DNA of 64,000 nt from the NCBI RefSeq assembly GCF_017312365.1, contig NZ_BLJI01000005.1, forward strand, positions 62,001-126,000, in the 5' to 3' direction. Of the stretch, positions 46,256 to 64,000 are shown in pieces. Made by a program: the position numbers and the translations under genes. The notes below the pieces were generated by a model, which was given only the letters and a program-made list of their open reading frames with translations, was not told the origin of the DNA and made no database searches. The stretch comes from Chroococcus sp. FPU101 (lineage in GTDB: Bacteria > Cyanobacteriota > Cyanobacteriia > Cyanobacteriales > Microcystaceae). Position 1 is the first letter of the stretch; the number at the start of each line of letters is the position of its first letter.

Positions 46256-46330
46256 TGTTTCTTTTTCCTACCTGAGATAATGTTAATTCTGGACAACTTG
46301 TGTTGTGCGATATGTGTCACAAATCACTAA

Positions 46331-47179
46331 TTAGCGTTTTTGACTCGACCATTTACAAGTGACTCTGAGGAAATATTGGAACAACAGGTCAAAACATAAA
46401 CCAATAACTCCAATGACAATTAAACCCACAAAGATTTCATCGGTTCTTAAGAAACGTCCTGCAACACTAATACGTCTTCCTAAACCTTCTGTAGATGCGA
46501 TTAATTCTGATACAATAACCAATTGCCAAGCGGCAGCAAGGTTAATTCGACACGCATCGAGGATACCTGGTAACACGTGGGGGAAAATGACTTGAGTCAG
46601 GGTTTGCCAACGATTTCCACCTAAAATATATGTGGCTTCGATTAAGTCTTTGGGGACAAATTTGACCGTATCCATCACCATCAATGAATTAAAGAAGAAA
46701 ACCCCAATAAAAATTAAAGTTATTTTTGGTTCTTCCCCAATACCTAAATAGAGAATGAGTAGCGGAATAAAGGCAGGGGCGGGCATATAACGCATTAAAC
46801 CAAAAAGTGGTTCTAGAAGGGCGCGAATACTTGGAAAACTGCCCATCAACACCCCAACAGGAATAGAAAGCAGTGAGGCAAACAGAAAGCCAACACCAAC
46901 CCGCCACAAACTCGCTACGGTATCCTTGAGTAGTTCTCTTGTACTCCATAGTCTACCAAATGCTTCTAAAACTTTACCTGGTGAGGGCAAAAATTTTGGG
47001 TCAATATTGCCAAAGGTTGTAGCCAGCCACCACAATAATAGAGGAAGTGCGATCGAAGTAATGGTTAAAGCAATATAAAGAGGTCGCGGAATATCTTCAG
47101 CCAGTCGCCAGAAGACACTCGGTTGTAAATTATTATTACGGGCTGCTGTTTTAGTCGAAAATTCTGTACCTTGAGTCAT
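46331..47179 (-). CDS. NitT/TauT-type ABC importer, permease subunit
   Basis: It encodes 282 residues with about six membrane segments and the conserved permease loop (ATYILGGNRWQTLTQVIFPHV, an EAA-type coupling helix). It forms the channel of the importer with the downstream ATPase. The substrate-binding protein gene ends 25 bases upstream. Confidence 0.9.
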   Translation of the reverse strand: MTQGTEFSTKTAARNNNLQPSVFWRLAEDIPRPLYIALTITSIALPLLLWWLATTFGNIDPKFLPSPGKVLEAFGRLWSTRELLKDTVASLWRVGVGFLFASLLSIPVGVLMGSFPSIRALLEPLFGLMRYMPAPAFIPLLILYLGIGEEPKITLIFIGVFFFNSLMVMDTVKFVPKDLIEATYILGGNRWQTLTQVIFPHVLPGILDACRINLAAAWQLVIVSELIASTEGLGRRISVAGRFLRTDEIFVGLIVIGVIGLCFDLLFQYFLRVTCKWSSQKR

Positions 47180-47204
47180 AATCAGTTCTCACTTTCTCAA
47201 TGAT

Positions 47205-48251
47205 TTACGCTTGAGATTTTTCGGCGTATGCTTTAATAAAGCGATCGTCAAATAACTTACTGATGTCGGGTTCGTTTTTGGCTAAACCGACTTCAACCAA
47301 AAATTCGCCAAGTTTTTCGGCTGCATAGTGCAAAGAAGTCATATCATTACCCGGTTTAAAAGCTTTAAGATTTTCTTCAATGGTAAATAGCTTGGTACCA
47401 TCTGCATATTGTTGATATTCTGCAACCGAAACTCCCGCCCGTCTCGCCATAATTTCAGTTGCACGTGCTGGGTTTTTCTTGATAGCGTCTAGAGTGACAA
47501 ACCAAGCATCGACTAAAGCTTGTACTTTTTCGGGCTTTTCTTCGATATATTTACGAGTAAAGACCAAATGATCCGAAATTGAGCCAGGAAAGTCTTTAGA
47601 GCTAAATAATTCTTTACTACCAGGACGTTTTAAAGCTTGGGTGGTAAAAGGTGCAAAGACCGCAACTGCATCAACTTGTTCACCAACAAAAGCCGATGCT
47701 GCTTTTCCTGTTTCGAGGGGGACAAACTGAATATCTTTTGGTGACATTCCCGCTTGTTTAAGTCCCAGTAATAGAAGAAAATGATCGACGGTTCCTTCTT
47801 CGGCGGCTACTTTTTTTCCTTTAAGATCTTGAACTGAGTTGATGCCTTCACGGACAATTACTTTATCGTTTCCTGTTGAGTTATCATTCACTAAGACAAC
47901 CACTTGGTCAGCACCACCGACCACAGAACTGACAGTATCACCTAATGTTTGGCTATTAGCATCAATTTGTCCTGCTGTCAAGGTACTAATCGATTCTAAA
48001 TAACCATCGAACCATTTTAAATCGACTGGAACTTGTTGCTCTTTAAAGATTCCCTTTTCTTGAGCCACTTGCCAGGGAAACCAGCCTGGCCATGCACTAA
48101 AACCCAAACGTAGGGCATCCACTCCCGCAGAAATAGCGGTGTCCTCTTCATTGGTGGTTTTGATATAAACCGCAGGATTGGTACAGGCAACCGTTAGCGA
48201 TAGAGTGATAATAAATAAAAGAAAAGATGATATTAGCGATCGAGCTTTCAT
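47205..48251 (-). CDS. NitT/TauT-type ABC importer, substrate-binding lipoprotein
   Basis: It encodes 348 residues. The lipoprotein signal ends in a lipobox (SLTVAC). The mature part has the type II periplasmic-binding fold with LRLGFSAWPGWFPWQVAQEKGIF, the LTAGQIDANSQTLGD region and DLKGKKVAAEEGTVDHFLL. Relatives bind nitrate, taurine or cyanate-like compounds. Context with a guanidine hydrolase and guanidine riboswitch points to guanidine or a derivative as ligand. It starts 89 bases after the HypB-like gene. Confidence 0.9.
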   Translation of the reverse strand: MKARSLISSFLLFIITLSLTVACTNPAVYIKTTNEEDTAISAGVDALRLGFSAWPGWFPWQVAQEKGIFKEQQVPVDLKWFDGYLESISTLTAGQIDANSQTLGDTVSSVVGGADQVVVLVNDNSTGNDKVIVREGINSVQDLKGKKVAAEEGTVDHFLLLLGLKQAGMSPKDIQFVPLETGKAASAFVGEQVDAVAVFAPFTTQALKRPGSKELFSSKDFPGSISDHLVFTRKYIEEKPEKVQALVDAWFVTLDAIKKNPARATEIMARRAGVSVAEYQQYADGTKLFTIEENLKAFKPGNDMTSLHYAAEKLGEFLVEVGLAKNEPDISKLFDDRFIKAYAEKSQA

Positions 48252-48340
48252 ATTTATAATAAGAATTGAATTTCTATGATTCCTCTAATCTTTTTAAATA
48301 AGGGTCGGGGAATTTCTTTTGATTAATGAACAGATGATCA

Positions 48341-49030
48341 TCAATGGTGTTGAGTTGGGGCTTGACTAATTTGCCTTCTTACCCATTCATACCACTGTTC
48401 TAACCCTTCTCCTGTTTTGGCAGAAATGGGAATAATTGTTACAGTTGGATTCATCTGGCGTACATTATTAATAATGCGATCGAGATCGATTTCTAAATAG
48501 GGTGCTAAATCCATTTTGGTAATTAATAAACAATCAGCCTCTTGAAACATGACTGGATATTTCAAGGGTTTGTCTTCTCCTTCAGCAATACTGAGTAAAG
48601 CGACCTTAGCGTGTTCACCTACTTCAAATTCAGCAGGACATACTAAATTACCTACATTTTCGACGAAAACTAACTCAAAATCTGATGGATTATAGTCATG
48701 GGCGAGACGATGAATACCCCCTGCAACCATCTTAGAATCGAGGTGACAGGAACGACCCGTATTAATCGCTATCACTGGAACATCATATTGTCTGAGACGT
48801 TCGGCATCTAATTCGGTAGTCATATCGCCTTCAATAACGGCAATTTTTAGCTTATGACTCAGTTTTTCTAGAGTGCGTTCAAGTAATACCGTTTTTCCCG
48901 CACCTGGACTACTCATAATATTGAGACAAGTAATACCCCACTCGTCAAAATGTTCTCGGTTATGGTCGGCCCCTGCTTGGTTAGCATGAAGTAAATTGAC
49001 CCCAAGGGCTACGTCAAAAGTTTGGTGCAT
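48341..49030 (-). CDS. hypB: HypB-like nickel-insertion GTPase
   Basis: It encodes 229 residues. The Walker A motif is [12 protein letters not shown], followed by [28 protein letters not shown] (metal-binding Cys-His) and the [13 protein letters not shown]4 motif. HypB delivers nickel with HypA. Sitting next to the guanidine hydrolase gene rather than hydrogenase genes, it probably loads that enzyme; accessory proteins of this type are required for the Synechocystis guanidine hydrolase. The extended histidine-rich N-terminus of some HypB is absent. Confidence 0.9.
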
Positions 49031-49091
49031 ATTGGCTTAAACTCCTAGCAATAAGGGATTGAATCACCGAAACGGGGGAAGGGGATACTAT

Positions 49092-49445
49092 TTACGCATG
49101 AATCCCCTCAATTCGGTCGATTTTGAGTTCTCGACCTGAGCGAATATCTTCCATCGGAGCTTGACACTTAGGACAAGCGTACTTAATGCCAATTTCAGGG
49201 CGATATTCTTCTTGGCAACGGTGACAAAAAGCAATCAAAGGTGTTTCTTGAATAACCAGTTTAGCCCCATCTAAAAAAGTATTGCGGGTTTGGACTTCAA
49301 AGGCGAATTGTAAACTAGCGGGTTCAACACAGGTAAACTTTCCTACCGTTAGATGAATTTGTTTAATTTCAGGTCGTTCGGGCTGCGATTCCCACCAATC
49401 TTGTACCGTAATTAATAACGCCTTCGTCATGTCTGTTTCGTGCAT
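49092..49445 (-). CDS. hypA: HypA-like nickel chaperone
   Basis: It encodes 117 residues. The N-terminal MHE supplies the nickel-binding His2. Two CxxC pairs (CHRC and CPKC, about residues 74-95) form the structural zinc site. It hands nickel to HypB and the target enzyme. It begins 4 bases after the guanidine hydrolase stop, indicating tight co-expression. Confidence 0.92.
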   Translation of the reverse strand: MHETDMTKALLITVQDWWESQPERPEIKQIHLTVGKFTCVEPASLQFAFEVQTRNTFLDGAKLVIQETPLIAFCHRCQEEYRPEIGIKYACPKCQAPMEDIRSGRELKIDRIEGIHA

Positions 49446-49449
49446 GGTT

Positions 49450-50640
49450 TTAAGTCCAGGCCACTAATTCAGGTTGTGCTTCGGGGTGAATATAAGCGGG
49501 TTTTTCCTTGCGTGGTAATTGCCCAGATAACACTAAATGCGCCATTGAATCACAAATGACTCGTGTTGCCATTAGTGAAGTCATATCACTAACGTCATAG
49601 GGGGGAGAAACTTCGACAACTTCGATACCGCAGACTGGAACTTTTTGGATAATTTTACCCAGTAAACCGAGTGCTTCCCTAGGGAGTAGTCCACCTGGCT
49701 CAGGCCAACCTGTACCAGGAACAAATCCCGCGTCAATGCAGTCAATATCAAAACTAATCCAAACGCAATCTGTACCATCTGTAGCGCGTTCAATCGCATA
49801 ATTCGCTGCCGCATCTAATCCCATTTCGGTAATATCAGTCACGGTTAAGATATTAGTAGCCCGTTCTCGACAGACTTTCACACCTTGACGGGGGACTTGC
49901 CATCCACCAATCCCTAATTGTACGAGATTCTTAGCGGGGGCATTTTTCATATTGGTTGCATGAAACCAAGGACAAGTGTGCATCCGTTCGTCTAAATCGG
50001 TTTCTTGAGTGTCTACATGGCGGTCAAAATGGATAATTCCGACTTTTTTATCGCCTAAATGACGACAAATGCCTCGTACAGTAGGGAAACCAATGGAATG
50101 ATCACCACCCAAAAGAATCGGAAATGCGCCAGAATTAAAGATATGTGCGACACCTTTGGAAATTTGGTCGAATGACTTTTCGTTATTGCCTGGAATAGTG
50201 AAAATATCGCCCACATCACACATCTTGATCTGTTCACGCAAATCAACCCCTAATTCAAAGTTATAGGGGGTATAGAGTGCAGAGATGCGGCGAATTCCTT
50301 GCGGCCCAAAACGTGTTCCAGGACGATAAGTTGTGCCAGAATCATGAGGTATACCGACAATTGCTACATCATATTTACCTACTTGTCGGACATCTTCTAA
50401 ATAGGGGGCCTTCATAAAAGTATTAATTCCCGCGTAGTGTGGCAATTCACCACGAGAGAAGGTCGATATAGTACGATCAATAATACTCTCGGCCGCTTCG
50501 AGTCCGTATTCTAAACCTTGATTGACTTCTTGTTGCCAACCCGTCAAAGGCAGTCGCTGCTCTAGTTCTAAGGCTCGTTCGGCTTCCGAAGAATGTCCAT
50601 TATTATCACTATTCGGTGGTTGGAAAGGGTAGTCACTCAT
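49450..50640 (-). CDS. gdmH: guanidine hydrolase, arginase superfamily (nickel-dependent)
   Basis: It encodes 396 residues from ATG 50640; the longer frame to 50688 is less likely. Arginase-fold metal motifs are GGDHSIGFP, HFDRHVDT and SFDIDCIDAGFVPG. The pattern HFDRHVDTQ and the GTGWPEPGG stretch are as I remember for the Synechocystis Sll1077-type guanidine hydrolase, and differ from ordinary agmatinases (HFDAH). The reaction is guanidine to urea plus ammonia. Support comes equally from context: a guanidine-I riboswitch upstream and HypA/HypB-like genes plus an importer downstream, the same order as sll1077-sll1082. An agmatinase remains possible only if context is ignored. Confidence 0.9.
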   Translation of the reverse strand: MSDYPFQPPNSDNNGHSSEAERALELEQRLPLTGWQQEVNQGLEYGLEAAESIIDRTISTFSRGELPHYAGINTFMKAPYLEDVRQVGKYDVAIVGIPHDSGTTYRPGTRFGPQGIRRISALYTPYNFELGVDLREQIKMCDVGDIFTIPGNNEKSFDQISKGVAHIFNSGAFPILLGGDHSIGFPTVRGICRHLGDKKVGIIHFDRHVDTQETDLDERMHTCPWFHATNMKNAPAKNLVQLGIGGWQVPRQGVKVCRERATNILTVTDITEMGLDAAANYAIERATDGTDCVWISFDIDCIDAGFVPGTGWPEPGGLLPREALGLLGKIIQKVPVCGIEVVEVSPPYDVSDMTSLMATRVICDSMAHLVLSGQLPRKEKPAYIHPEAQPELVAWT

Positions 50641-50732
50641 CTGTAAACTCCTATTGTGATGGCCATACAAAGTAGTATAGATGCACAAATTCCCAAGAGA
50701 ATCATCTTAGAGCCTTTGTGCTAATCTATGAT

Positions 50733-51623: not shown

Positions 51624-53294
51624 TTAATTCTTTTTTGTAATGCACTCAGCATCTAATACTATTAACTTTTCTGTTGTTTTTACTGAACACAGATTAATTA
51701 CTTGAGTAAGAGCAGGTAATTGATTTTGTTTTAATTTTGCAGTCGTTTTTAAAACAATATCATTAAAAGAACTATTAATCAGCCATTTTCGTTGTAATAA
51801 ATAATCAGAGTTAAAAAATGTTGGTTCAATCATCAGATAATCTATTCCATATTTTTTAATCAAATTTTGTATATCAGCTAAATTTGAACTGTATTGCGCT
51901 TGAATTAAATCAATTGCTTTTTGTTGCATCTGATTGTAATAAACAGGGTGAATGGGTAGGGCAAATTCGGTACTAAATAAAACTGAACGTTGGGCAAATG
52001 CAGGTAAATTACTGGTATCAGGTGTTAAGGAGGCTATTAAAATATCTTTAGGTTTTGAGGCAAAAAAATGATATATTTCTTGATTTTTCCCAATTCTCCA
52101 TTCTTGTAATCTTAAAAATAAAGCGGGTGTGAAAGCAGGTAATAAAAATATAATAGCTACCAAAATTAGGATAAATTTAGTTGTTTGAATTGAAAATTTT
52201 TGCTTTAATTTTGTATCAAAATAATTCAGTAACGCTAAAATAACAATAGCTGATGATATTGCCATCACAAATTTAAGACTATGATAAGTATAACGTCCAG
52301 GAAAATAAAGACGTAATGGAACAATAGAAGCGGCTATATACATAATTAAAGAAGCTAGTAAAAGTTGCCAAAGTATTTTTAATTCTTGATTCACTAAACT
52401 AGCTAAAAACTGTGATTTTTTTAAAACAAATGGTAAACCTAAGCTGAGCCAAATAAATGGCGGAAAAGTTGGCGCACCTATACCAGAACTACTTTTAAAC
52501 GGTAAAAATAATGGATTAAAACCAAAATATTCGATTCTTCCATTGATATAATATTCTGGCATTTGTTTCATTTGTTCTAAGGTTATTACTGAACCAAATT
52601 CTGAAATGTGTAGTGCAAAAGGAAGAAGCACTAAAAAAGATACAACTAATCCTAAACTCCAAAAGAGATAATTTGTTTTATCTAGAATAAATCTAAAATG
52701 ATTATTCTTCCATTCTAATAAACGAATGGTTAATAAAAGAACTTGAACAAAAACTAATTGAGGGAAAAATAAACCTTGTAAAGCAATGATGATCAAACAA
52801 AGAATAAGGGAACGTCTAACTAAATAATACAAAAAAGCCGCAAAAATCGGATAGACAAAAGCTCTAGGAGTTCCAGAGACTAAATCATCTTTTAGCCAAA
52901 TATTGATATTTAAGATTAAAGTCGATAGAAAAGCACTAAAGGGAATTGGTAAAATAATAAGAGAGAATTTATAAAAATAGCTTGTGGTAATCATTGCTAA
53001 AAAAACTGGAATAATTTTAGCAAGTAACATCGGCGAAATACCGAGTTTTGCACCGAGCCAATAAAATAATTTATAACCTGTTGGGGCGACGGATTGAAAA
53101 TAATTAAAGATTAAATCATTTTTAAATAACTCAGAATCGATAAACTGTTGAAACCAGATAATATGCTGTCGCGCATCATCTTGTACAACATAAGGCTGAC
53201 TTAACGCATAAAATAGAGTAATGATTCCAAAATATAGAGGTGGAATTAAACTAGCAATTAGCCAAAATCTAGTAGATTGATTAAATAATTTCAT
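51624..53294 (-). CDS. polytopic membrane protein, GT-C glycosyltransferase-like
   Basis: It encodes 556 residues with about 10-12 hydrophobic segments and a C-terminal soluble domain of about 150 residues. Just after the first span is YVVQDDARQHIIWFQQF, an acidic D-D motif in the first outer loop as in GT-C enzymes that use lipid-linked sugars. I do not recognise a specific family. It starts 11 bases after the lone ketosynthase gene, so the two probably share a transcript. A sugar- or lipid-modification role for the polyketide is inference only. Confidence 0.6.
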   Translation of the reverse strand: MKLFNQSTRFWLIASLIPPLYFGIITLFYALSQPYVVQDDARQHIIWFQQFIDSELFKNDLIFNYFQSVAPTGYKLFYWLGAKLGISPMLLAKIIPVFLAMITTSYFYKFSLIILPIPFSAFLSTLILNINIWLKDDLVSGTPRAFVYPIFAAFLYYLVRRSLILCLIIIALQGLFFPQLVFVQVLLLTIRLLEWKNNHFRFILDKTNYLFWSLGLVVSFLVLLPFALHISEFGSVITLEQMKQMPEYYINGRIEYFGFNPLFLPFKSSSGIGAPTFPPFIWLSLGLPFVLKKSQFLASLVNQELKILWQLLLASLIMYIAASIVPLRLYFPGRYTYHSLKFVMAISSAIVILALLNYFDTKLKQKFSIQTTKFILILVAIIFLLPAFTPALFLRLQEWRIGKNQEIYHFFASKPKDILIASLTPDTSNLPAFAQRSVLFSTEFALPIHPVYYNQMQQKAIDLIQAQYSSNLADIQNLIKKYGIDYLMIEPTFFNSDYLLQRKWLINSSFNDIVLKTTAKLKQNQLPALTQVINLCSVKTTEKLIVLDAECITKKN

Positions 53295-53305
53295 GACCTC
53301 TTTTT

Positions 53306-55153
53306 TTAGTCTAGATCAATCCAAAATCGTTGACGCTGGAACGGATAAGTAGGTAAGATGACTTTACGACAAGGATAATCTTGATATAGTTCTGACCAGT
53401 TAATTGATTCTCCTTGTAAATAAAGCTGTGCGATGGTTTGTAAATTATCTAACTGGTTTTCTAAAGTGTAACTAGCCGTTTTCTGTGTTGGGATTTGACC
53501 GTAAAAAACATCATTAGTTATCTGTCCATTAATAAATAAATTCAATTTTTGCTGTAATTCTTTTATTGAGGTGGCAATAATACATAAACGGTGTGAAAAA
53601 TGCGATCGTCCTGTATTCACTGTATAACACATATCAGTAAGAGAATAATTTGGGTGAGAATTGAAATAAACTTGATATTTTCGGGCTAATTCGTTTAAAG
53701 CTTTCTCATTTTTTGCCGACAATGTAAAAAGATTTAGAGCAATATCGTTTGTTTCTGTTTCTTGTAATGGTGCTTCTTCGATGACAACATGAGCATTAGT
53801 ACCGCTAAAACCAAAGGAACTAACCCCCGCAATACGGGATATATTACCGCGTTTCCAAGGGGTAAGCTGAGTGGGAATTGTAAACGGTAAATCGTTCCAA
53901 TTAATATTCGGGTTTGGGGATTTAAAATGGATTTGAGGGGGAATTTGTTCGTGTTGTAGTGCGAGAATAACTTTGATTAAACTTGCGATACCTGCTGAAG
54001 CTTCCGAATGTCCAATATTCGCTTTTACTGCCCCTAATAAGACTAATAGATTTTGTTCAAAAACTGCTCCTAACCCCCCAACTTCGATCGGATCACCTAA
54101 AGCCGTTCCCGTCCCATGTGTTTCGATATAATTAACTTGTTCTGGTTCAATTTTGGCATTATTCAACGCTTGTCGTATCACTGCTTGTTGTGCGGGGCCA
54201 TTGGGGACGGTTAAACCACTACTACGCCCATCTTGATTAATTGCAGAACCTCGAATGACAGCTAGAATATTGTCTTTAGACGCGATCGCATCACTTAAAC
54301 GTCTTAGAACAATGATGCCACATCCTTCCGATCGTACAAAACCATTAGCCGACGCATCAAAGGTTTTACAACGGCTATCAGGTGACAACATTCGCGCTTT
54401 AGAAAAATTAATACTAACTTCGGGTAACAGAATACTATTTACACCACCCGCAAGAGCGAGATCACATTCTCCATTCCGTAAACTCGAAATTGCTAGATGA
54501 ACCGCTACTAAAGAAGACGAACAAGCGGTATCTACAGCCAGACTGGGGCCTGTTAAACCTAAACTATAAGATAAACGTCCTGCCGCGATACTGTGGGTAT
54601 TTCCTGTCGTTAAATAGGCATCAATGTCAGTGACATCTCGTTTAAGTAAGCGATGCCAGTTATCATTACCACAAATGCCAATAAACACCCCAGTTTGACT
54701 ACCATTGAGATTTTCTGGGGCAATACCCGAAGATTCTAACGCTTCCCAACTCACCTCTAAGAGTAGACGTTGCTGAGGATCGAGACTCATCGCTTCTCGT
54801 GGTGCAATGCGGAAAAACTGAGCATCAAAATCTTGTAAATTAGATAAAAAGCCACCCTGACGGACATACATCTTACCGAGACTCGCCTGATTTGAATCAT
54901 AATAGGTTTGGCTGTCCCAACGATCGCTAGGAATATCAGTAATTGCATCACCACTCTTTTCTAAAAGCTGCCAAAATGTTTCAGGATCAGACACACCACC
55001 TGGAAAACGGCAACCCATCCCGATAATAGCAATGGGTTCGTGTAAATTTTGTTCTAAACGCTCTATTTTAGCCTGAAGTTGTTGAATCGCTGCGATCGCT
55101 CGTTTAACGTTACTAACTTCTTCGATGGGGTTTGAGTTTAAGTTAGATATCAT
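53306..55153 (-). CDS. stand-alone polyketide ketosynthase lacking its acyltransferase domain
   Basis: It encodes 615 residues. The N-terminal 35 residues are a short coiled-coil docking-like segment (VKRAIAAIQQLQAKIERLEQNLHEP). The ketosynthase (about 38-460) has all catalytic residues: C211 in VDTACSSSL, H346 in ETHGTGT and H382 in NIGHSEASAG. The KS-AT linker follows (about 470-552), and then, where an AT of about 300 residues should begin, the sequence passes directly to the post-AT linker (LYLQGESINW, LPTYPFQRQRFWI) and stops. No ACP, KR or other domain follows. The AT therefore appears excised. It shares a 174-base divergent promoter region with the large PKS. Confidence 0.85.
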   Translation of the reverse strand: MISNLNSNPIEEVSNVKRAIAAIQQLQAKIERLEQNLHEPIAIIGMGCRFPGGVSDPETFWQLLEKSGDAITDIPSDRWDSQTYYDSNQASLGKMYVRQGGFLSNLQDFDAQFFRIAPREAMSLDPQQRLLLEVSWEALESSGIAPENLNGSQTGVFIGICGNDNWHRLLKRDVTDIDAYLTTGNTHSIAAGRLSYSLGLTGPSLAVDTACSSSLVAVHLAISSLRNGECDLALAGGVNSILLPEVSINFSKARMLSPDSRCKTFDASANGFVRSEGCGIIVLRRLSDAIASKDNILAVIRGSAINQDGRSSGLTVPNGPAQQAVIRQALNNAKIEPEQVNYIETHGTGTALGDPIEVGGLGAVFEQNLLVLLGAVKANIGHSEASAGIASLIKVILALQHEQIPPQIHFKSPNPNINWNDLPFTIPTQLTPWKRGNISRIAGVSSFGFSGTNAHVVIEEAPLQETETNDIALNLFTLSAKNEKALNELARKYQVYFNSHPNYSLTDMCYTVNTGRSHFSHRLCIIATSIKELQQKLNLFINGQITNDVFYGQIPTQKTASYTLENQLDNLQTIAQLYLQGESINWSELYQDYPCRKVILPTYPFQRQRFWIDLD

Positions 55154-55327
55154 CCCTAATCTACAATTAAAATTTTCCGACAGTTATTAAAATGGAATCA
55201 AGATTATCAACAAACTGTCATGGTTAAGCTTAAGATCTATTGTTTGTTCGTTCATCGTCCTTTAAAGTATATAAGATAAAAAACACTGTTAGAGATCTAA
55301 TAAGAACGTAGGTTTAGTATAAAACCA
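55154..55327. promoter_or_regulatory. divergent promoter region of the polyketide locus
   Basis: The 174 bases between the two oppositely oriented PKS genes must carry promoters for both arms. It is AT-rich and contains no coding frame. I cannot assign -10/-35 elements with confidence. Confidence 0.45.
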
Positions 55328-58300
55328 ATGGTCGAGCCGACAAACCCCCCTCGTAGAGAAACCCAACCCTCTTTAGCCACCGACAAGGCAAAATCTCAGA
55401 TTGATTCTGATCAGTCTATCGCTCAACCTTTAGCTATCAGCAATGGGGGTATTCTGCCCAAAAAACACGATATACCAACGACTTTACCCAAAATCTTGCT
55501 ACAAGCGGCTTCAACAACAAGAAATTGTTTAATTTATCTAGATCGTCACGGAAAAGTCAAAACCGAGTCTTATCAGGAATTACTCGAAAACGCCTCAAAA
55601 ATTCTCACACGACTAAGACAAGCAGGTTTACAACCGCAAGATCCAGTTATCCTACAACTCGAAGCAACAGATGAACTTTTAGCTGCTTTCTGGGGATGTA
55701 TTTTGGGTGGTTTTGTTCCCGTCATTCTCGAAATGGCGACAACTCAACCTGTTAGAGAAAAACTAGATCATCTCTGGACATTTTTAGAACAACCTCTGAT
55801 TATTTCTGCTCAATCACTGTCATATTCACGTATTTTGAGGATTGATTACTCAGTATCACCAACTACCGACTATTATCAAGCTCAGAGTGATGATATTGCT
55901 TTTTTTAATCTGACTTCTGGTAGTACGGGTGTTCCCAAATGTATTCAACTGACCCATCAAAACATAATATCTCGTGCTGTTGGGGCAAATTTACATAATC
56001 ATCATCTCTCGGATGACATTATTCTCAACTGGCTTCCTTTCGATCATATTGGTAGTATTTCCGACTGGCATATACGCCCCTGTTTACTCGGTTGTACTGC
56101 TGTTTATGTCCAAAAAGAATATATCCTCAAACGTCCTCTAAACTGGCTCGATTTAATTAATCAGTACAGAGTTACTCATAGTTGGTCGCCGAACTTTTTC
56201 TATGCGTTACTCAATGACCAACTCAAAAATCAATTATCACAATGGGACTTATCCTGTGTGCGTTTTCTACTTACCGCAGGAGAAAATATTACTCAAAATG
56301 CGATTCAAGGATGTTTAGCACAACTGCAACCCTATCATTTATCTCAAACCGCCATTAGGCCCGCGTTTGGCATGGCTGAGGTTGGTTCTGGAATTACTTA
56401 TAATACTAACGAAACTGAAGCGTTTAAATTTCATGTCGAACAAGGGGGAACATTTGCTGATTTAGGAACGCCAATCCCTGGTATTACATTACGAATTGTT
56501 AATGAGCAAAATCACGTTTTACGAGAAGGTGAAATAGGTTATTTACAGATAAAAGGAGAAGCAGTTAGTAAAGGCTATTATCAGAACACAGAAGCCAATC
56601 AAGCAGCATTTTTAGCGGATGGATGGTTTAAAACAGGCGATTTGGGTTTAATTCGGTTGGGTCACTTGGTGCTGACGGGTCGCAGTAGTGAAATCATTAT
56701 TATTAATGGGACTAATTATTATAGTCATGAAATTGAAGCGATCGTTTCTCAAGTTGAGGGGGTAGCCGTTTCATATACCGCAGCAGTCGCGGTTACTGAA
56801 GATGAGGACGCAACCGAACGGTTAGCCATCTTTTTTAGTAGTGATTTAGAAAATGATCAACCCTTATTAAATCAGATTAGGCGAGTTCTTGTAACACACA
56901 TGGGTATTAATCCAGATTATCTGATTCGGATTGAGAAAACCGCTATCCCTAAAACCGCCATTGGTAAAATACAGCGTTCTGAACTCGCTCAAAGATTTAA
57001 AACAGGTGAATTTAAACAAAATATTGCGTCTCTCGGTCAAAAAGTTAATCTCAGCGAAATTGAACAAGATCTTAAACGCATTTGGCAAGACATTCTACAA
57101 AAATCAGAAATTGGTCTGCATGATAACTTTTTTGAATTGGGTGGTACTTCTTTTCTCCTCGTCCAAGTTCAGCAACAAATTCAAGAATATTTAGGACGAT
57201 CGCTATCAATTGCCAATCTATTTCGCCATCCCACTTTACATACGCTAAAAACGTATTTATATCAACCCCTAAACTCAATTTCAACCAAACCTAAAAAACA
57301 AATTATTCAGGGCGATATTGCTGTAATTGGTTTATCCTGCCGTTTTCCTGGGGCGAATAATATCGATCAATTCTGGCAAAATTTATGTAATGGAGTAGAA
57401 TCGATCCGCTTTTTTGACACCACAGAAATCATAAAATCGGGTGTATCGCCTGAATTGGTTCAAAATCCTGATTATATTAAAGCGAGTCCTATTCTAGATC
57501 AAATAGAAAGCTTTGATGCTGAATTTTTCGGATTTTCCGCCAAAGAAGCCGAATTATTAGACCCACAACAACGACTGTTACTCGAATGTGCTTATGAAGC
57601 CCTCGAAGATGCCCATCTGAACCCCCAAACCTATACAGGTGAAATCGGTATTTATGCGGGTGCAGCGATGAATACCTATCTATTGAATAATATTTATCCC
57701 AACCGTCATCAACTTGACCCCAATGATTCCTTAAATGTCACTACACTTGATTCAATGGGTGGTTTTCAGATGATGGTGGCAAATGACAAAGATTATCTAA
57801 CCACGCGAGTCTCTTATAAACTCAATCTGACGGGGCCTAGTATCAATGTTCAAACCGCTTGTTCAACTGGACTAGCTGCAATACATCTCGCCGCAATGAG
57901 TCTGAAAAATGGTGAATGTGACATCGTTTTAGCAGGAGGTGTATCGGTACAAGTTCCGCAAAAAATCGGCTATCTCTATCAAGAGGGGATGATTCTTTCA
58001 AACGATGGTCATTGTCGGGCTTTTGATGCACAGGCCAGTGGTACCATTTTTGGGAGTGGTTGCGGTTTCGTTGTTCTCAAACCCTTAGAAACAGCAATTC
58101 AAGATGGCGATCGCATTTATGCCGTACTCAAAGGATCAGCCCTGAGTAATGATGGTGGTACGAAAGTCGGTTATCTGGCACCTAATGGTGATGGACAGGC
58201 CCGCGCTGTTGCCCAAGCGCTAGAAAATGCAGGAGTCGATGCAGAAACCATTAGTTATCTAGAAGCACACGGTACTGGTACACTCCTTGGTGATCCCATT

Positions 58301-61300
58301 GAAGTCGCAGGACTAGAAAAAGCATTTCGTACCTATACTCAGAAAACAGGTTATTGTGCCATTGGTTCAGTAAAAACCAACATCGGACATTTACAAATTG
58401 CGTCTGGAATTGCGGGCTTTATTAAAACGGTTCTCGCACTGTATCATCAAAAAATCCCAGCTACACTGCATTTTGAAAAACCTAATCTGAACATCGATTT
58501 TAAACAGAGTCCTTTTTATGTCAATACAACGCTACAAGATTGGTCATCAGAAGGGGCTCCGCGTCGCGCTGGTGTAAATTCCTTGGGTATTGGTGGAACT
58601 AATGTTCATGTCATCCTCGAAGAAGCCCCAGTAGCCGAAAAGCCCCGCCAAAATCAAGATCGTCCGCTTCATTTGTTGACCCTCTCTGCCAAATCTGACA
58701 TAGCATTTTGTAATTTAGTCAAGCAATATCAACAATTTTTAACAAAAAATCCGAATATTTCTTTAACGGATCTTTGTTTTAGCGCGAATACAGGACGATC
58801 TCAGTACAGCGATCGCATAGCCATTATTGCGGAATCTATCCCAGAGTTACAGAGAAAATTAGCAAACCCTACATCTTATCAGGTTAATAATGTTCCTTCT
58901 AAAATCGCTTTTCTGTTCACGGGACAAGGTTCACAATACATTAATATGGGGCGACAACTCTATGAGACGCAACCCCTATTTAGAGAAACGCTTAATTACT
59001 GTGCTGAAATTTTGCAACCGTTCCTCAATCAATCTTTACTCGATGTTTTGTATCCACCCTCATTTAAGCAAAATGGTCACGTCTTACCCATCGACCAAAC
59101 CATCTATACACAGCCTGCTTTATTTGCCATAGAATACGCACTGTTTAAATTATGGCAATCTTGGGGGGTTGTGCCAACTGCGGTAATGGGTCATAGTGTC
59201 GGTGAATATGTTGCGGCAACTGTAGCGGGTGTTTTCAGTTTAGAAGATGGACTGAAATTAATTGCAACACGGGCTAAACTGATGCAAGCTTTACCCCAAG
59301 ATGGTGAAATGGTCGCAGTAATGGCCGATGAATCAATTGTAAAAGAACTGATTCGTCCTGTAACGTCAGAAATTGCCTTTGCTGCGTTGAATGGTTCACA
59401 AAATACAGTTATTTCGGGGACACGGAAAACCCTGCAAAAAATCATCGATCTTTTAGCCATTCATGGAATTAAAACCCAGTTTTTGAATACTTCTCATGCG
59501 TTTCATTCTCCCTTGATGGAACCGATGATCGCAGAATTTAGGAAAGTGGCGCAAGAAATTCGTTATTTTTCACCGCAAATCGATCTTATTTCTAATGTAA
59601 CAGGCAATCTGATCACAAATGAAATCGCTACATCAGATTATTGGTGTCGTCAGATAACCAAACCAGTACGGTTTGCTGATGGTTTTAAAGCGTTGTTGCA
59701 AGATGGCTATCAGGTGTTTCTCGAATGTGGTAGTAAACCTGTATTACTTGGGATGGGTCGCAGGATTTTAGCAGAAATGACACCAGACACGACTCAAAAT
59801 TATTTATGTTTACCCAGTTTATCGCCTAATTCAGACTGGGAACAGATGCTAGAGAGTGTTGCCCAACTCTATCTTAAAGGAATGGTGATCGATTGGATTA
59901 GTTTTGATCAAGATTATCAGCGTCGTAAAATCAGTTTACCGTCCTATCCATGGCATAGAAAACGCTATTGGATTGATCCACCTTCTAAAATATTGGTTCC
60001 CCCTCGTCCATCGTCGAATGTTCATCCATTACTCGGACAACGTTTACCATCAGCCTTAAAGGAAATTATCTTTCAATCTTGTCTCAGTGTAGATACTCTA
60101 AGCGGTGACTTGTCGTCGCCAGAATGGTTTAAAGATCATCAAGTGTATCAAGTCCCCGTTTTACCTGCTACAGCATACATCGAAATAGCTTTAGCCGCAG
60201 GGTCAAAGGTTTTCAAAACAGCAAATTTGGTTCTAGAACATTTAACTATTTCTAAACCGTTAATCTTTGCTCTCTCAGAGACGCAAACAGTACAAGTTAT
60301 TCTAAAAAAAGACGACAGACAAGCATCATTTGAAATTTATAGTTCACTTGATCAAGAAAATTGGAAATTACATAGTTTTGGGACAGTTACAACTCATCAA
60401 ACTTCTTTAGATAAAACAAACATCGATCTTTCTCAACTTCAACAAGAACTCATCCCTGTTTCCGTCGAGACTTTCTATCAACAATGTCAAAAACAAGGAT
60501 TAAAATATGGTTCTACTTTCCGAGGAATTAAAAAACTTTGGCGACAAAATGGTAAAGCTTTAGGAAAAATTACTTTACTGCTTGACCTAGAATCTTATTT
60601 ATATCATCCAAGTTTACTTGATGCGTGTTTTCAAGTTATTTTAGCTGCTTTTCCAACTAGGACAAAATCAGAAACTTATTTACCTGTAGCTATCGAACAA
60701 GTTTGCTTTTACCGTCCCTTGAGTTCAAACATTTGGAGTTATGTTCAACTGCGTCCCCAAACTGAACAAAATCAAATCATTGCTGACGTACAATTATTTG
60801 ATGAACAAGGAATAATCGCCCAAATCAAAGGAATTACATCAAAAAGAGCCAATTCACAAACATTACTCGGACAAGACCATAAAATAGATCAAGATTGGTT
60901 TTATCAGATTCAATGGCAACCGCAACCCCAAATACCCGTCTATAAATCGAAAAAAGAAGATATACACTGGCTTATTTTTGCGGATTATACAGGAATAGCT
61001 CAAGAATTAGCGAATTTGTTGGAATTAAAATCCCAATCTTGTACACTTGTATTTCCCAATGATCTTAACAGACAAAATCCCGAAGAGTATCAGCAATTAT
61101 TGAACTCATTAGAATCACTAACAGGAGTTATTTATCTTTGGAGTTTAGACCCCGCAGACAGTTTAGAACTTAGCACTCAAAGCACTTTATATTTAGTGCA
61201 AGCCTTAGTCAAGCAAAACTACCCAAGAACTCGTTTTTATCTAATCACACGCGGCACACAAGCAGTAACAAATCATCTTCCTAATATAAATGATCTTACA

Positions 61301-63583
61301 GCTTCTCCTCTGTGGGGAATGGGAAAAACGATCGCACTAGAACACCCAGAATTAAACTGTGTCCGCATTGATCTAGATGCCAAAAATAACGATATTCAGG
61401 CTTTGTCTTCTGAAATTAACTCGTTTAGCCAAGAAGATCAAATCGCGTATCGAGATGGTATACGTTATGTCGCTAGATTAGTTCGTTGTTCTTTAAATGA
61501 AAAATCAACACAACCTTTACAGTTAGCCATATCTGAAAGAGGAACTATCGATCATTTAACATGGCAACCAAAAGAGCGTCATTCACCTCAATTTGATGAA
61601 GTAGAAATTCAAGTTTCAGCAACTGGACTCAATTTTAGAGATTTACTGAATGTGTTAGGACTGTCTTCGGTGGGGGAATTAGGTTTAGAATGTGTCGGTG
61701 AAATCGTCGCTATTGGTGAAGGAGTGCGACATTTAAAAATAGGTGATCCTGTAATTGCTGTTGCTACAGGTAGTTTTAGTCAATATGTCACTGCTAATGC
61801 AAATATAGTCACTAAAAAACCTGAAAACTTAAATGATTTTGAAGCAGCAACGATTCCAGGTGCTTTTCTTACTGCTTATTATACCCTTCATCATTTGGCT
61901 AAACTCAAAGCGGGGGAACGTGTACTTATTCATGCAGCAGCAGGGGGAGTAGGTCTTGCAGCCGTTCAAATTGCACAATACATAGGTGCGGAAGTCTTCG
62001 CAACTGCATCAGAGGGGAAATGGGACTATCTAAAAACCCAAGGTGTGAACCATATTATGAATTCTCGTACCCTTGATTTTACTGATGAAGTAATGAAGCT
62101 AACTCAAGGAAAAGGAGTCGATGTTGTTCTAAATTGCCTTAGTGGTGAATTTATCCCAAACAGCTTATCTATTCTCTCATCTGGCGGTCGTTTTCTAGAA
62201 ATTGGTAAACAAGGAATTTGGCAAAGCGAACAAGTCGCACAAATTCGGGCTGATGTATTTTATACAAGCTGTGATTTACTCTCACTTGCGCAACAAAAAC
62301 CCCATCTTATTCAAAAAATGCTCAAACAATTACTGATCTTGTTTGAAAACGAGCAGCTTCAACCTCTACCTTATCAAGTCTTTTCCTGGGAACAAGCTAG
62401 AAATGCGTTTCGTAAAATGCAGCGTTCCGAACATATCGGCAAAATCTTAATTACTCCCCCTAAAGGCACTGTTATTCGCAGTAATAGCACTTATTTGATT
62501 ACAGGAGGAACAGGAGATCTCGGCTTAAAAGTCGCTCAATGGCTGATTACAAAAGGCGCATCACATCTTATTTTAGTCGGAAGACATCAACCTGCTACAC
62601 ACGTTCAGGAAACTATTACACAACTCACCAGTCTAGGGACAACAATTCAAGTCATACAAGCTGATGTGTCAAATAGTCATGATGTTGCTGAATTCCAAAA
62701 TATTAAGACATTTCCTCCACTACGAGGAATCATTCATGCAGCAGGTGTTCTTGATGATGGAATTATAGAAAATCAAACTTGGTCGCGTTTTGAGCAGGTA
62801 TATTTACCTAAAATTCAAGGGGCTTGGAACTTACACCAATTTAGCCAAAATCACTCACTAGATTTCTTTATCATGTTTTCTTCGGCAGCGTCCTTATTAG
62901 GGAGTACAGGACAAGCCAATTATACCGCCGCTAATAGCTTTCTCGATAGTTTAGCATTTGCCCGTCGTGGCTTGGGACTTCCTGCTATAAGTATCAATTG
63001 GGGAATGTGGGACGGAATGGGTTTATCTGCCAAAAATACTCATATTAGCCAAGGTATATCAGGAATACAAGCGATCGCACCCTCAGACTATTTAACCGTT
63101 CTAGAACAAGTTCTGGGTAGTGATTTGACCCAAATTGGTGTCATGTCGATTAATTGGTCAAACATCCAAAATTCTACATTTTTGAGCGAAATTAAACCAA
63201 CAGCCCATAATGCTATCACTAGCACGTCTGTACAGAGTGTAGAAAAAAACGATTTAATGAAACACGTTTTATTACAAATCGCTACCGTACTTGGTTTAAA
63301 ATCGATTAATACTATTGATCCAAATCAAGGATTGATCTCACTTGGTCTCGACTCCCTAACCTCAGTTGAACTCAGAAATCGACTCGCGATGACTTTAAAT
63401 TGTACCTTACCTTCTACGATCGCTTTTGATTACCCAACTGCTACCGATTTAGTCAACTATCTAATGAAAACTTTAGATCCGAAACAGCCTTTAGAAAAAT
63501 CAGAAATAACAAATTTACAACATCTCTCAGACTCCGAAGCAGAAGACCTACTCAATGAAGTATTAGAGAACCTCAATTATTAA
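55328..63583 (+). CDS. modular type I polyketide synthase: acyl-AMP ligase-ACP-KS-AT-DH-ER-KR-ACP
   Basis: It encodes 2751 residues. Order with landmarks: adenylate-forming ligase (about 45-560; LTSGSTGVPKCIQLTH at about 195, LADGWFKTGDLG); ACP1 (S608 in ELGGTSFLLVQ); KS (C845, H981, H1021); AT (S1290 in GHSVGEY, HAFH at 1390-1393 indicating malonyl-CoA); DH (H1604 and D1765; the usual glycine of HxxxGxxxxP is Gln); ER (NADPH motif HAAAGGVGLAAVQ at about 2200); KR (TGGTGDLG at about 2391, Y2532, LDD motif predicting B-type); ACP2 (S2676 in LGLDSL). One fully reducing module would extend an activated carboxylic acid starter by two saturated carbons. The ligase looks like FAAL/PksJ-type loaders. 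The second PKS starts 6 bases downstream. Confidence 0.92.
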   Translation: MVEPTNPPRRETQPSLATDKAKSQIDSDQSIAQPLAISNGGILPKKHDIPTTLPKILLQAASTTRNCLIYLDRHGKVKTESYQELLENASKILTRLRQAGLQPQDPVILQLEATDELLAAFWGCILGGFVPVILEMATTQPVREKLDHLWTFLEQPLIISAQSLSYSRILRIDYSVSPTTDYYQAQSDDIAFFNLTSGSTGVPKCIQLTHQNIISRAVGANLHNHHLSDDIILNWLPFDHIGSISDWHIRPCLLGCTAVYVQKEYILKRPLNWLDLINQYRVTHSWSPNFFYALLNDQLKNQLSQWDLSCVRFLLTAGENITQNAIQGCLAQLQPYHLSQTAIRPAFGMAEVGSGITYNTNETEAFKFHVEQGGTFADLGTPIPGITLRIVNEQNHVLREGEIGYLQIKGEAVSKGYYQNTEANQAAFLADGWFKTGDLGLIRLGHLVLTGRSSEIIIINGTNYYSHEIEAIVSQVEGVAVSYTAAVAVTEDEDATERLAIFFSSDLENDQPLLNQIRRVLVTHMGINPDYLIRIEKTAIPKTAIGKIQRSELAQRFKTGEFKQNIASLGQKVNLSEIEQDLKRIWQDILQKSEIGLHDNFFELGGTSFLLVQVQQQIQEYLGRSLSIANLFRHPTLHTLKTYLYQPLNSISTKPKKQIIQGDIAVIGLSCRFPGANNIDQFWQNLCNGVESIRFFDTTEIIKSGVSPELVQNPDYIKASPILDQIESFDAEFFGFSAKEAELLDPQQRLLLECAYEALEDAHLNPQTYTGEIGIYAGAAMNTYLLNNIYPNRHQLDPNDSLNVTTLDSMGGFQMMVANDKDYLTTRVSYKLNLTGPSINVQTACSTGLAAIHLAAMSLKNGECDIVLAGGVSVQVPQKIGYLYQEGMILSNDGHCRAFDAQASGTIFGSGCGFVVLKPLETAIQDGDRIYAVLKGSALSNDGGTKVGYLAPNGDGQARAVAQALENAGVDAETISYLEAHGTGTLLGDPIEVAGLEKAFRTYTQKTGYCAIGSVKTNIGHLQIASGIAGFIKTVLALYHQKIPATLHFEKPNLNIDFKQSPFYVNTTLQDWSSEGAPRRAGVNSLGIGGTNVHVILEEAPVAEKPRQNQDRPLHLLTLSAKSDIAFCNLVKQYQQFLTKNPNISLTDLCFSANTGRSQYSDRIAIIAESIPELQRKLANPTSYQVNNVPSKIAFLFTGQGSQYINMGRQLYETQPLFRETLNYCAEILQPFLNQSLLDVLYPPSFKQNGHVLPIDQTIYTQPALFAIEYALFKLWQSWGVVPTAVMGHSVGEYVAATVAGVFSLEDGLKLIATRAKLMQALPQDGEMVAVMADESIVKELIRPVTSEIAFAALNGSQNTVISGTRKTLQKIIDLLAIHGIKTQFLNTSHAFHSPLMEPMIAEFRKVAQEIRYFSPQIDLISNVTGNLITNEIATSDYWCRQITKPVRFADGFKALLQDGYQVFLECGSKPVLLGMGRRILAEMTPDTTQNYLCLPSLSPNSDWEQMLESVAQLYLKGMVIDWISFDQDYQRRKISLPSYPWHRKRYWIDPPSKILVPPRPSSNVHPLLGQRLPSALKEIIFQSCLSVDTLSGDLSSPEWFKDHQVYQVPVLPATAYIEIALAAGSKVFKTANLVLEHLTISKPLIFALSETQTVQVILKKDDRQASFEIYSSLDQENWKLHSFGTVTTHQTSLDKTNIDLSQLQQELIPVSVETFYQQCQKQGLKYGSTFRGIKKLWRQNGKALGKITLLLDLESYLYHPSLLDACFQVILAAFPTRTKSETYLPVAIEQVCFYRPLSSNIWSYVQLRPQTEQNQIIADVQLFDEQGIIAQIKGITSKRANSQTLLGQDHKIDQDWFYQIQWQPQPQIPVYKSKKEDIHWLIFADYTGIAQELANLLELKSQSCTLVFPNDLNRQNPEEYQQLLNSLESLTGVIYLWSLDPADSLELSTQSTLYLVQALVKQNYPRTRFYLITRGTQAVTNHLPNINDLTASPLWGMGKTIALEHPELNCVRIDLDAKNNDIQALSSEINSFSQEDQIAYRDGIRYVARLVRCSLNEKSTQPLQLAISERGTIDHLTWQPKERHSPQFDEVEIQVSATGLNFRDLLNVLGLSSVGELGLECVGEIVAIGEGVRHLKIGDPVIAVATGSFSQYVTANANIVTKKPENLNDFEAATIPGAFLTAYYTLHHLAKLKAGERVLIHAAAGGVGLAAVQIAQYIGAEVFATASEGKWDYLKTQGVNHIMNSRTLDFTDEVMKLTQGKGVDVVLNCLSGEFIPNSLSILSSGGRFLEIGKQGIWQSEQVAQIRADVFYTSCDLLSLAQQKPHLIQKMLKQLLILFENEQLQPLPYQVFSWEQARNAFRKMQRSEHIGKILITPPKGTVIRSNSTYLITGGTGDLGLKVAQWLITKGASHLILVGRHQPATHVQETITQLTSLGTTIQVIQADVSNSHDVAEFQNIKTFPPLRGIIHAAGVLDDGIIENQTWSRFEQVYLPKIQGAWNLHQFSQNHSLDFFIMFSSAASLLGSTGQANYTAANSFLDSLAFARRGLGLPAISINWGMWDGMGLSAKNTHISQGISGIQAIAPSDYLTVLEQVLGSDLTQIGVMSINWSNIQNSTFLSEIKPTAHNAITSTSVQSVEKNDLMKHVLLQIATVLGLKSINTIDPNQGLISLGLDSLTSVELRNRLAMTLNCTLPSTIAFDYPTATDLVNYLMKTLDPKQPLEKSEITNLQHLSDSEAEDLLNEVLENLNY

Positions 63584-63589
63584 TCAATT

Positions 63590-64000
63590 ATGTCAAGTGA
63601 ACCGATCGCGATCATAGGTATAGGCTGTCGTTTCCCAAAAGCGCCTAACCCCGATGCTTTCTGGCAGTTGATGCGAGATGGCAAAGACGCTATTACTGAA
63701 GTTCCTCCCTCGCGTTGGGATCTCAATCTTTATTATCATCCCGACTTCAAAGAACCCAATAAAACTAATACGAAATGGGGTGGCTTTCTCGAACAAGTCG
63801 ATCAATTTGATCCGCAGTTTTTTGGCATTGCCCCCCGTGAAGTCCCCACCATCGACCCACAACAGCGACTCATCCTTGAAGTTGCCTACGAAGCCCTTGA
63901 AGATGCGGGACTGATTCTTGAGCAATTAGCAGGTAGTAGAACAGGTGTATTTATTGGCATTGGGAGTCATGAATATTCAACAATGGTTTGGCATAAATTT
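63590..64000 (+). CDS. second polyketide synthase, N-terminal ketosynthase (3' partial)
   Basis: The frame from ATG 63590 (SSEPIAIIGIGCRFPKAPN) is open to the window edge, 137 residues. It shows the start of a ketosynthase: FWQLMRDGKDAITEVPPSRW, GGFLEQVDQFDPQFFGI, PREVPTIDPQQRLILEVAYEALE and GVFIGIGSHEY. The active-site cysteine lies beyond the window. It follows the large PKS after 6 bases and continues the assembly line. There is no N-terminal docking domain before the KS. Confidence 0.92.
   Translation, partial: MSSEPIAIIGIGCRFPKAPNPDAFWQLMRDGKDAITEVPPSRWDLNLYYHPDFKEPNKTNTKWGGFLEQVDQFDPQFFGIAPREVPTIDPQQRLILEVAYEALEDAGLILEQLAGSRTGVFIGIGSHEYSTMVWHKF

What the first reader, a model, noticed from the sequence alone, without database searches (positions are those of the whole stretch)
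51624..64000. Uncharacterised polyketide locus with a fully reducing loading PKS
The plus arm starts with an adenylate-forming acyl ligase and ACP, has one complete KS-AT-DH-ER-KR-ACP module with intact catalytic residues, and passes to a second PKS that leaves the window. The minus arm has a lone KS and a membrane protein. A ligase-loaded, fully reduced first extension suggests a lipid-like product, but I do not recognise the cluster as a known pathway.
Basis: partly seen in the sequence, partly recalled or inferred. Interest (0 to 1): 0.75.

Follow-up and report, generated by a model that had tools for sequence, protein, structure and literature searches.

The report
Cyanobacterial polyketide line for sphingolipid-like bases
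A cyanobacterium carries a polyketide assembly line that ends in a serine-palmitoyltransferase-like domain and is matched by a sphingolipid-type ketone reductase elsewhere in its genome, so it probably builds sphingolipid-like amino-alcohol lipids.

Summary
In detail: 51624-64000 carries a membrane protein and an AT-less KS on the minus strand, then ligase-ACP-KS-AT-DH-ER-KR-ACP and the start of a second PKS on the plus strand. PKS2 is KS-AT-DH-ER-KR-ACP plus a C-terminal alpha-oxoamine synthase (AOS). The best solved relative of the AOS is serine palmitoyltransferase. All 16 genomes in its PKS-linked clade also encode a 3-ketodihydrosphingosine-reductase-like SDR. Here it sits on another contig; in a distant relative it lies inside the cluster. 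Among 386 sampled cyanobacterial genomes the AOS (19) and the reductase (17) share 13.

Best reading: a reduced acyl chain is released by decarboxylative condensation with an amino acid, then reduced to a sphinganine-like base. This is a cyanobacterial, fused-release variant of the PfSgaAB and fumonisin logic. Amino acid, starter, chain length and final lipid are not shown. The loading ligase is closer to McyG-type domains than to solved fatty-acyl-AMP ligases. In this assembly PKS2's KR is split by a frame break that the sister species lacks.

The parts
51624..53294 (-). polytopic membrane protein, 556 aa, no Pfam family; kept beside the cluster in A. hegewaldii (70%) and in the cluster of G065 (43-45%)
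53306..55153 (-). KS-only protein, 615 aa: KS with catalytic Cys/His/His and linkers on both sides, AT missing
55154..55327 (.). 174-bp gap between the divergent KS and PKS1 genes; probably holds both promoters (inference)
55328..63583 (+). PKS1, 2751 aa: ligase-ACP-KS-AT-DH-ER-KR-ACP
55478..57007 (+). adenylate-forming loading ligase; nearest solved 6ulx/6ulw and McyG 4r0m
57068..57259 (+). first ACP (LGGTS)
57314..58477 (+). KS of PKS1
58910..59860 (+). AT of PKS1 (GHSVGE, HAFH)
60023..60859 (+). DH of PKS1
61523..62455 (+). ER of PKS1
62486..63013 (+). KR of PKS1 (LDD motif)
63185..63397 (+). second ACP of PKS1 (LGLDS)
63590..64000 (+). start (KS) of PKS2; beyond the window (L014:5590-10956 and 10896-13274) it continues as KS-AT-DH-ER-KR-ACP-AOS, with a frame break in the KR

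Best explanation
The locus is an assembly line for a sphingoid-base-like amino-alcohol lipid. Proposed steps: (1) the ligase activates a carboxylic acid starter and loads it on the first ACP (domains shown; starter unknown). (2) PKS1 and PKS2 extend it with malonyl units and reduce them fully (domains shown; number of cycles unknown). (3) The C-terminal AOS of PKS2 releases the ACP-bound chain by PLP-dependent decarboxylative condensation with an amino acid, probably L-serine (my odds about 0.6), giving a 2-amino-3-ketone, a 3-ketosphinganine analogue (domain and family shown; reaction and amino acid inferred). (4) A 3-ketodihydrosphingosine-reductase-like SDR, in this genome on contig C4, reduces the ketone to the 2-amino-3-ol (family and co-occurrence shown; reaction inferred). 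(5) The AT-less KS, an SRPBCC (START-like) protein and the membrane protein act later or in trans (association shown in some genomes; roles unknown).
For: PKS2 ends in ACP-AOS. Best solved relatives of the AOS are SPTs 3a2b and 8guh (E 1e-74), with the PLP Lys, the stacking His, the Asp-x-x-His pair and the substrate Arg aligned. The AOS lies in a 16-row clade (100/100), 15 rows in frame with PKS domains in the stretch held, away from ordinary cyanobacterial BioF-type enzymes. A KDSR-like SDR is in the G065 cluster between the KS and membrane genes; its best solved relative is TSC10, 3-ketodihydrosphingosine reductase, as is that of this genome's copy. The SDR is present in 16 of 16 genomes of the clade (9 of 9, 7 of 7). 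Over 386 genomes AOS 19, SDR 17, both 13. Precedents: PfSgaAB, a PKS plus AOS with SPT activity and a KDSR homolog (PMC12134224); SPTs that take acyl-ACP (PMC9386255 abstract).
Against: No product is known. NCBIfam scores BioF (361 bits) just above SPT (346), all under their cut-offs. A thermophilic AOS is nearly as close as SPT (E 1e-73). 6 of 19 AOS genomes lack the SDR and 4 of 17 SDR genomes lack this AOS. In this genome the SDR is not in the cluster. The ligase is not near solved FAALs. PKS2 is frame-broken in this assembly.
Confidence: 0.68

Rival explanations
1. Same line, but the AOS condenses alanine, glycine or another amino acid, giving a 1-deoxy-sphingoid base or other amino-ketone lipid, as in fumonisin (alanine) or vitroprocines (tyrosine).
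For: The AOS scores nearly equally with BioF and SPT models and with a thermophilic AOS. PKS chain release with alanine and tyrosine is known (PMC4523872 passages), and a KDSR homolog serves fumonisin too (PMC12134224 section 8).
Against: The two best solved relatives are SPTs, and the tested bacterial PKS-AOS pair, PfSgaB, almost only takes serine.
Confidence: 0.22
2. The starter is not a fatty acid: a McyG-type ligase loads an aryl or other small acid, and two single extensions give a short aryl or alkyl amino-ketone rather than a lipid.
For: Nearest solved ligases are 6ulx/6ulw and McyG 4r0m at 382-389 bits, FAAL 3pbk only 134. That McyG loads phenylpropanoids is recalled.
Against: Within NCBIfam the best ligase models are fatty-acid ones (PRK07768 261 bits, PRK09192 218, both under cut-off). 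Relatives in the same AOS clade have no loading ligase in the PKS. The KDSR partner points to a long-chain base.
Confidence: 0.18
3. In this strain the cluster is a fresh pseudogene and makes nothing; its function survives only in relatives. This does not exclude the main reading for the pathway.
For: PKS2 is read in two frames that change inside the KR; A. hegewaldii has one open frame.
Against: dN/dS is 0.17 before and 0.15 after the break, and no other stop was found; a slip in a draft assembly of 104 contigs would look the same.
Confidence: 0.35
4. A sulfonolipid (capnine-like) pathway in which the AOS uses cysteate, linked to the sulfonate ABC transporter genes at 45479-48251.
For: A cysteate-C-fatty acyltransferase (28eh) is among the solved relatives, E 6e-51; SsuA- and TauC-like transporter genes lie about 3.4 kb from the membrane-protein gene.
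Against: SPTs score far better (E 1e-74). The transporter genes do not lie at the A. hegewaldii locus. The partner reductase is KDSR-like.
Confidence: 0.04

Closest known systems
PfSgaAB of Pseudomonas fluorescens MYb115 (PMC12134224; abstract, sections 8 and 9, passages)
   Same: [quoted passage not shown] a KDSR homolog is in the cluster. Two-gene sets of this layout (PKS, then AOS) are in Amphritea and Rhodocyclaceae, whose AOS fall in the same 44-row clade as the window's.
   Different: PfSgaA is one iterative PKS with no loading ligase described and the AOS is a separate protein; here there are two PKS proteins, a loading ligase and an in-line AOS, plus an AT-less KS, and the KDSR can lie elsewhere. 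The PfSgaAB sequences themselves were not compared. The main text does not mention cyanobacteria.
Fungal fumonisin-type sphinganine-analog pathway (named in PMC12134224 section 8 and PMC4523872 passages)
   Same: Reducing PKS, PLP-dependent release with an amino acid, KDSR homolog (FUM13).
   Different: Fungal, alanine, separate AOS protein (last point recalled).
Rhodobacterial SPT with AcpR and AasR (PMC9386255, abstract)
   Same: A ligase loads a dedicated ACP and the SPT takes the acyl-ACP.
   Different: Three separate proteins, no PKS extension.
Cyanobacterial AMP-binding enzyme with an AOS domain, Synechococcus PCC 7002 B1XHP8 (PMC3870968, section 7 and passages)
   Same: Assembly-line AOS of the Aminotran_1_2 group; modelled there on SPT (42% identity).
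   Different: No extending PKS module or reductase described in the passages read. Of the 7 non-redundant entries in its table none is KS-AT-DH-ER-KR-CP-AOS; the nearest is KR-CP-PLP2 of Streptomyces albus.
BioF-type AOS of cyanobacteria, e.g. Npun_R3567 (PMC8895605, passages)
   Same: Same enzyme superfamily.
   Different: Npun_R3567 gave no 3-ketosphinganine and falls in a cyanobacterial BioF group; six ordinary cyanobacterial AOS form a separate clade here.

Membership tests
PKS-AOS sphinganine pathway (PfSgaAB type) | Fully reducing type I PKS feeding an AOS | tested here: met
   Domain scans
PKS-AOS sphinganine pathway (PfSgaAB type) | Two-gene layout with one iterative PKS and a separate AOS | tested here: not met
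   Two PKS proteins and the AOS fused to PKS2. Filed as works like it, a variant.
PKS-AOS sphinganine pathway (PfSgaAB type) | KDSR-like reductase | tested here: met
   Best solved relative TSC10; in this genome on another contig
PKS-AOS sphinganine pathway (PfSgaAB type) | SPT activity with serine and sphinganine product | not testable with these tools
   Needs enzyme assay or lipidomics
Serine palmitoyltransferase | PLP Lys, stacking His, Asp/His and substrate Arg in register with solved SPT | tested here: met
   Alignment to 3a2b; these residues are shared with other AOS enzymes
Serine palmitoyltransferase | Score over a curated SPT model cut-off | tested here: not met
   NCBIfam SPT models 346, 304 and 241 bits against cut-offs 640, 500 and 670; BioF 361 against 426
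3-ketodihydrosphingosine reductase (SDR partner) | Closest solved relative is a KDSR | tested here: met
   8jat TSC10 first, E 1.3e-34 against 5.9e-28 for the next; own copy 5.6e-33 against 1.1e-26
3-ketodihydrosphingosine reductase (SDR partner) | Curated family model | tested here: inconclusive
   No KDSR model among the 25 listed; best SDR model 204 bits, cut-off 215
Fatty acyl-AMP ligase (loading domain) | Nearest to solved FAALs | tested here: not met
   6ulx/6ulw/4r0m 382-389 bits, FAAL 3pbk 134 and 3kxw 123
GT-C glycosyltransferase (membrane protein) | Detectable homology to PMT-like GT-C proteins or solved GT-Cs | tested here: inconclusive
   Profile comparison with PMT_2 proteins: probability 63%, E 7e-5, acidic loop motifs not aligned; no PDB or Pfam match; predicted fold useless, mean pLDDT 43

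The most novel reading that the evidence does not exclude
A scattered set of cyanobacteria makes true sphingolipids through carrier-protein-bound assembly lines (ligase-ACP-AOS, with or without PKS modules, plus a KDSR). This would be the unknown genetic basis of cyanobacterial sphingolipids. The AT-less KS, START-like protein and membrane protein would add later acyl or head-group steps.
Probability: 0.5. Interest if true: 0.78.

Novelty: new variant of a known kind. Interest (0 to 1): 0.62.

Why it matters
A 2022 study (PMC8895605; passages read) says that ceramide-type sphingolipids are reported from only two cyanobacteria, that a genetic basis had yet to be reported, and that testing extra AOS homologs would be of interest. 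It names a 571-aa second AOS in Moorea producens, a size like the ACP-AOS frames here (532-580 aa). If right, this locus and its KDSR partner supply a two-gene marker, name candidate producers (Aphanothece hegewaldii CCALA 016, Xenococcus PCC 7305, Okeania SIO3B5, Pleurocapsa CCALA 161), and make the question testable by one E. coli expression. It would also extend PKS-made sphingoid bases to photosynthetic bacteria with in-line PLP release.

Tried and rejected
Sulfonate transporter, hypA/hypB and agmatinase as pathway genes: rejected, absent from the 12 kb examined beside the A. hegewaldii locus. Right flank (147-aa protein, kinase): kept in A. hegewaldii but about 10 kb of other genes away from PKS2, so outside the cluster.

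Membrane protein as a GT-C glycosyltransferase: not shown. PMT-like proteins do sit beside the PKS-AOS in L078, L079 and L080 (the PMT_2 domain tested in L079 only) and within 5 kb of the reductase in A. hegewaldii and G165. Left as a hint.

FAAL name for the ligase: not supported by nearest structures. The label 'FAAL' in the output means only 'matched by this ligase query'.

Olefin-synthase and heterocyst-glycolipid PKS: not pursued, because the release domain here is an AOS (their release domains recalled, not tested). Saxitoxin SxtA, a CP-AOS protein, was neither fetched nor compared.

Serine-specific residues: no residue in the passages read separates serine from other substrates, so the amino acid stays open.

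The scan uses short exact patterns, so organisms missing there mean nothing.
Full report
WHAT IS THERE. The window is part of contig C5 (62001-126000) of a 5.29-Mb, 104-contig genome. PKS1 is ligase-ACP-KS-AT-DH-ER-KR-ACP. Its catalytic motifs are present, apart from a Gln in place of Gly in the DH motif. The KS-only protein has the KS Cys/His/His and both flanking linkers but no AT.

BEYOND THE WINDOW. PKS2 continues as KS-AT-DH-ER-KR-ACP and ends in an alpha-oxoamine synthase, AOS. In this assembly it reads in two frames that change inside the KR. The sister species Aphanothece hegewaldii CCALA 016 (taken to be G001, since its contig length equals that of NZ_PXOH01000003.1) has one open frame of about 2550 aa. 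Both halves in this genome look under purifying selection and carry no other stop (dN/dS 0.17 and 0.15; PKS1 0.19). The break is therefore recent or an assembly slip.

CLUSTER LIMITS. A. hegewaldii keeps four genes in the same order: membrane protein 70%, KS 78%, PKS1 70%, and 81% for the part of PKS2 after the break. The left-hand neighbours of the window (agmatinase, hypAB, sulfonate ABC genes) gave no match in the 12 kb examined there. The right-hand neighbours are kept but lie after about 10 kb of other genes.

THE AOS. Solved relatives: serine palmitoyltransferases 3a2b and 8guh at E 1e-74, then a thermophilic AOS at 1e-73; KBL, BioF and ALAS follow at weaker values. NCBIfam puts BioF (361 bits) just ahead of SPT (346), all under their cut-offs. 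In a tree of 54 AOS domains (44 assembly-line type or close to it, 6 ordinary cyanobacterial ones, E. coli BioF and KBL, two solved enzymes) the window's AOS lies in a clade of 16 with support 100/100. Fifteen of these 16 are in frame with PKS domains in the stretch held (for the window's own, the half after the break); one, L023, is cut by its contig end. The 16 lie inside the 44-row clade (100/100), which includes the separate AOS of Amphritea and a Rhodocyclaceae bacterium that follow a single KS-AT-DH-ER-KR-ACP PKS. The outgroup branches are long and their placing is unsure.

DISTRIBUTION. At E 1e-90 the ACP-AOS is in 19 of 386 cyanobacterial genomes. Layouts in fetched loci are: two-PKS sets with a loading ligase in this genome, G001, G165 and G065; single PKS-AOS proteins; ACP-AOS; ligase with AOS in one protein; and PKS plus separate AOS. 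The PKS modules thus look like optional inserts between loading ligase and AOS (inference).

THE REDUCTASE. In G065, a genome of another family, the order is PKS2-AOS and an HMGL-like gene on one strand, then on the other PKS1, AT-less KS, SRPBCC protein, SDR and P0003-type membrane protein. The SDR's best solved relative is TSC10, 3-ketodihydrosphingosine reductase (8jat, E 1.3e-34; next 5.9e-28). Close homologs form a clear tier in 10 of the 12 AOS-bearing genomes chosen for (E at most 3e-84; next tier 2e-32 or weaker); G022 and G027 lack it. This genome's copy is at C4:108089-108877 (62%) and also has TSC10 as best solved relative. An SRPBCC gene lies beside the reductase in 4 of the 9 reductase stretches of G065, G000, G001, G010, G017, G023, G028, G165 and G326 (in G065, G000, G001 and G165). 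Acaryochloris also has it; the Planctomycetales, Rhodocyclaceae, Nitrospira and Amphritea genomes do not at E 1e-30. A motif YPPDTDTP...EN..KP was printed for 40 SDR frames, some of them repeats of one gene, by a script that looked for it; at least three stretches that hold a reductase match (L025, L168, L173) were not printed.

CO-OCCURRENCE. Over the same 386 genomes: AOS 19, SDR 17 (E 1e-50), both 13; Fisher p 1.1e-16 by genome, 3.7e-11 by genus (16 AOS genera, 13 SDR genera, 11 shared). This does not correct for deeper relatedness. From the coordinates, five of the 13 have both genes within 3 kb (G326, G041, G390, G125, G144), G065 has both in one cluster about 20 kb apart, and seven have them apart, this genome among them. 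Exceptions told in full: AOS without SDR in G022, G027, G042, G075, G283 and G412. SDR without this AOS in G108, G129, G246 and G160; in the first three the SDR lies within about 110 bp of another AOS lineage in a frame of 1095-1130 aa, while in G160 only one 401-aa AOS on another contig was seen.

THE AT-LESS KS. Counterparts: A. hegewaldii 78%, G065 55%, G165 57%. The G165 protein still holds a 51-residue piece that matches an AT (PF00698 positions 64-114, E 1e-5, under the curated cut-off), so the gene probably arose from a KS-AT protein by loss of the AT. In G165 it heads a KS-SRPBCC-SDR row. Its task is unknown; a trans-acting condensation is a guess.

THE LIGASE. Nearest solved domains are 6ulx/6ulw (389 and 385 bits) and McyG 4r0m (382), far ahead of 7r7f (152), FAAL 3pbk (134) and 3kxw (123). 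NCBIfam's best ligase models are fatty-acid ones, under their cut-offs. The starter is therefore open.

THE MEMBRANE PROTEIN. Its family is in 47 of 386 genomes, so it is broader than the pathway, but its best hit in that sample outside this genome is the in-cluster gene of G065. No fold or family could be assigned.

MECHANISM. I read it as activation, reducing extension, release by decarboxylative condensation with an amino acid, and ketone reduction, giving a sphinganine-like base. Domains, families and co-occurrence are shown. Amino acid (serine most likely), starter, chain length, number of cycles and later steps are inferred or unknown.

AGAINST THE LITERATURE. PfSgaAB (PMC12134224; abstract, sections 8-9 and passages seen) is the nearest tested system: an iterative PKS, a separate AOS with SPT activity nearly exclusive for serine, and a KDSR homolog; 6,101 homologous clusters are reported, dominated by Burkholderia. 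PMC9386255 (abstract) shows SPTs that prefer acyl-ACP. PMC3870968 (section 7 and passages) lists assembly-line AOS proteins, none with a full reducing module plus AOS. PMC8895605 (passages) reports that Nostoc punctiforme makes no sphingolipids, that its one AOS is BioF-type, and leaves other cyanobacterial AOS homologs as an open question. My paper searches listed no description of this locus type; only open-licence papers were searchable, listings were capped, and supplementary files were out of reach.

VERDICT. A real, conserved pathway; a new variant of a known kind. Interest 0.62.

Noticed in passing
G000:C1:76375-113912, C13:25768, C15:61874: Further KS domains in large frames (1462-2514 aa) in the same genome, i.e. 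other PKS loci.
   Followed up: no
G000:C4:107250-108900 (L155:8249-9895): KDSR-like SDR and an SRPBCC (Polyketide_cyc) gene as a divergent pair; the same pair in A. hegewaldii C67 and, in one row with a KS, in G165 C209.
   Followed up: partly
L103:6484-10608, L104:6795-10877: A compact cassette: ligase and AOS in one protein followed directly by the KDSR-like SDR, with no PKS.
   Followed up: partly
G108:C1:2085219-2087162, G129:C1:1822978-1824915, G246:C10:72813-74767: A different AOS lineage (36-38% identity) in frames of 1095-1130 aa directly beside the KDSR-like SDR, perhaps a second origin of the same pairing.
   Followed up: no
G165:C212 end and C209 start: The G165 cluster seems split over two contigs: PKS1 and PKS2-AOS near the end of C212, KS-SRPBCC-SDR at the start of C209.
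   Followed up: no
L017:2080-11526: The Okeania PKS-AOS is 3149 aa, longer than the others, with an insert between DH and ER that holds an RtxA-repeat-like match.
   Followed up: no
L095:2613-3533 and 12026-13246: Beside PKS2-AOS in G065 lie a PagL-like outer-membrane gene and an HMGL-like gene; link to the pathway unknown.
   Followed up: no
window 45479-50688: Sulfonate-type ABC transporter genes, hypA, hypB and an arginase/agmatinase-family gene left of the cluster; not at the A. hegewaldii locus.
   Followed up: partly
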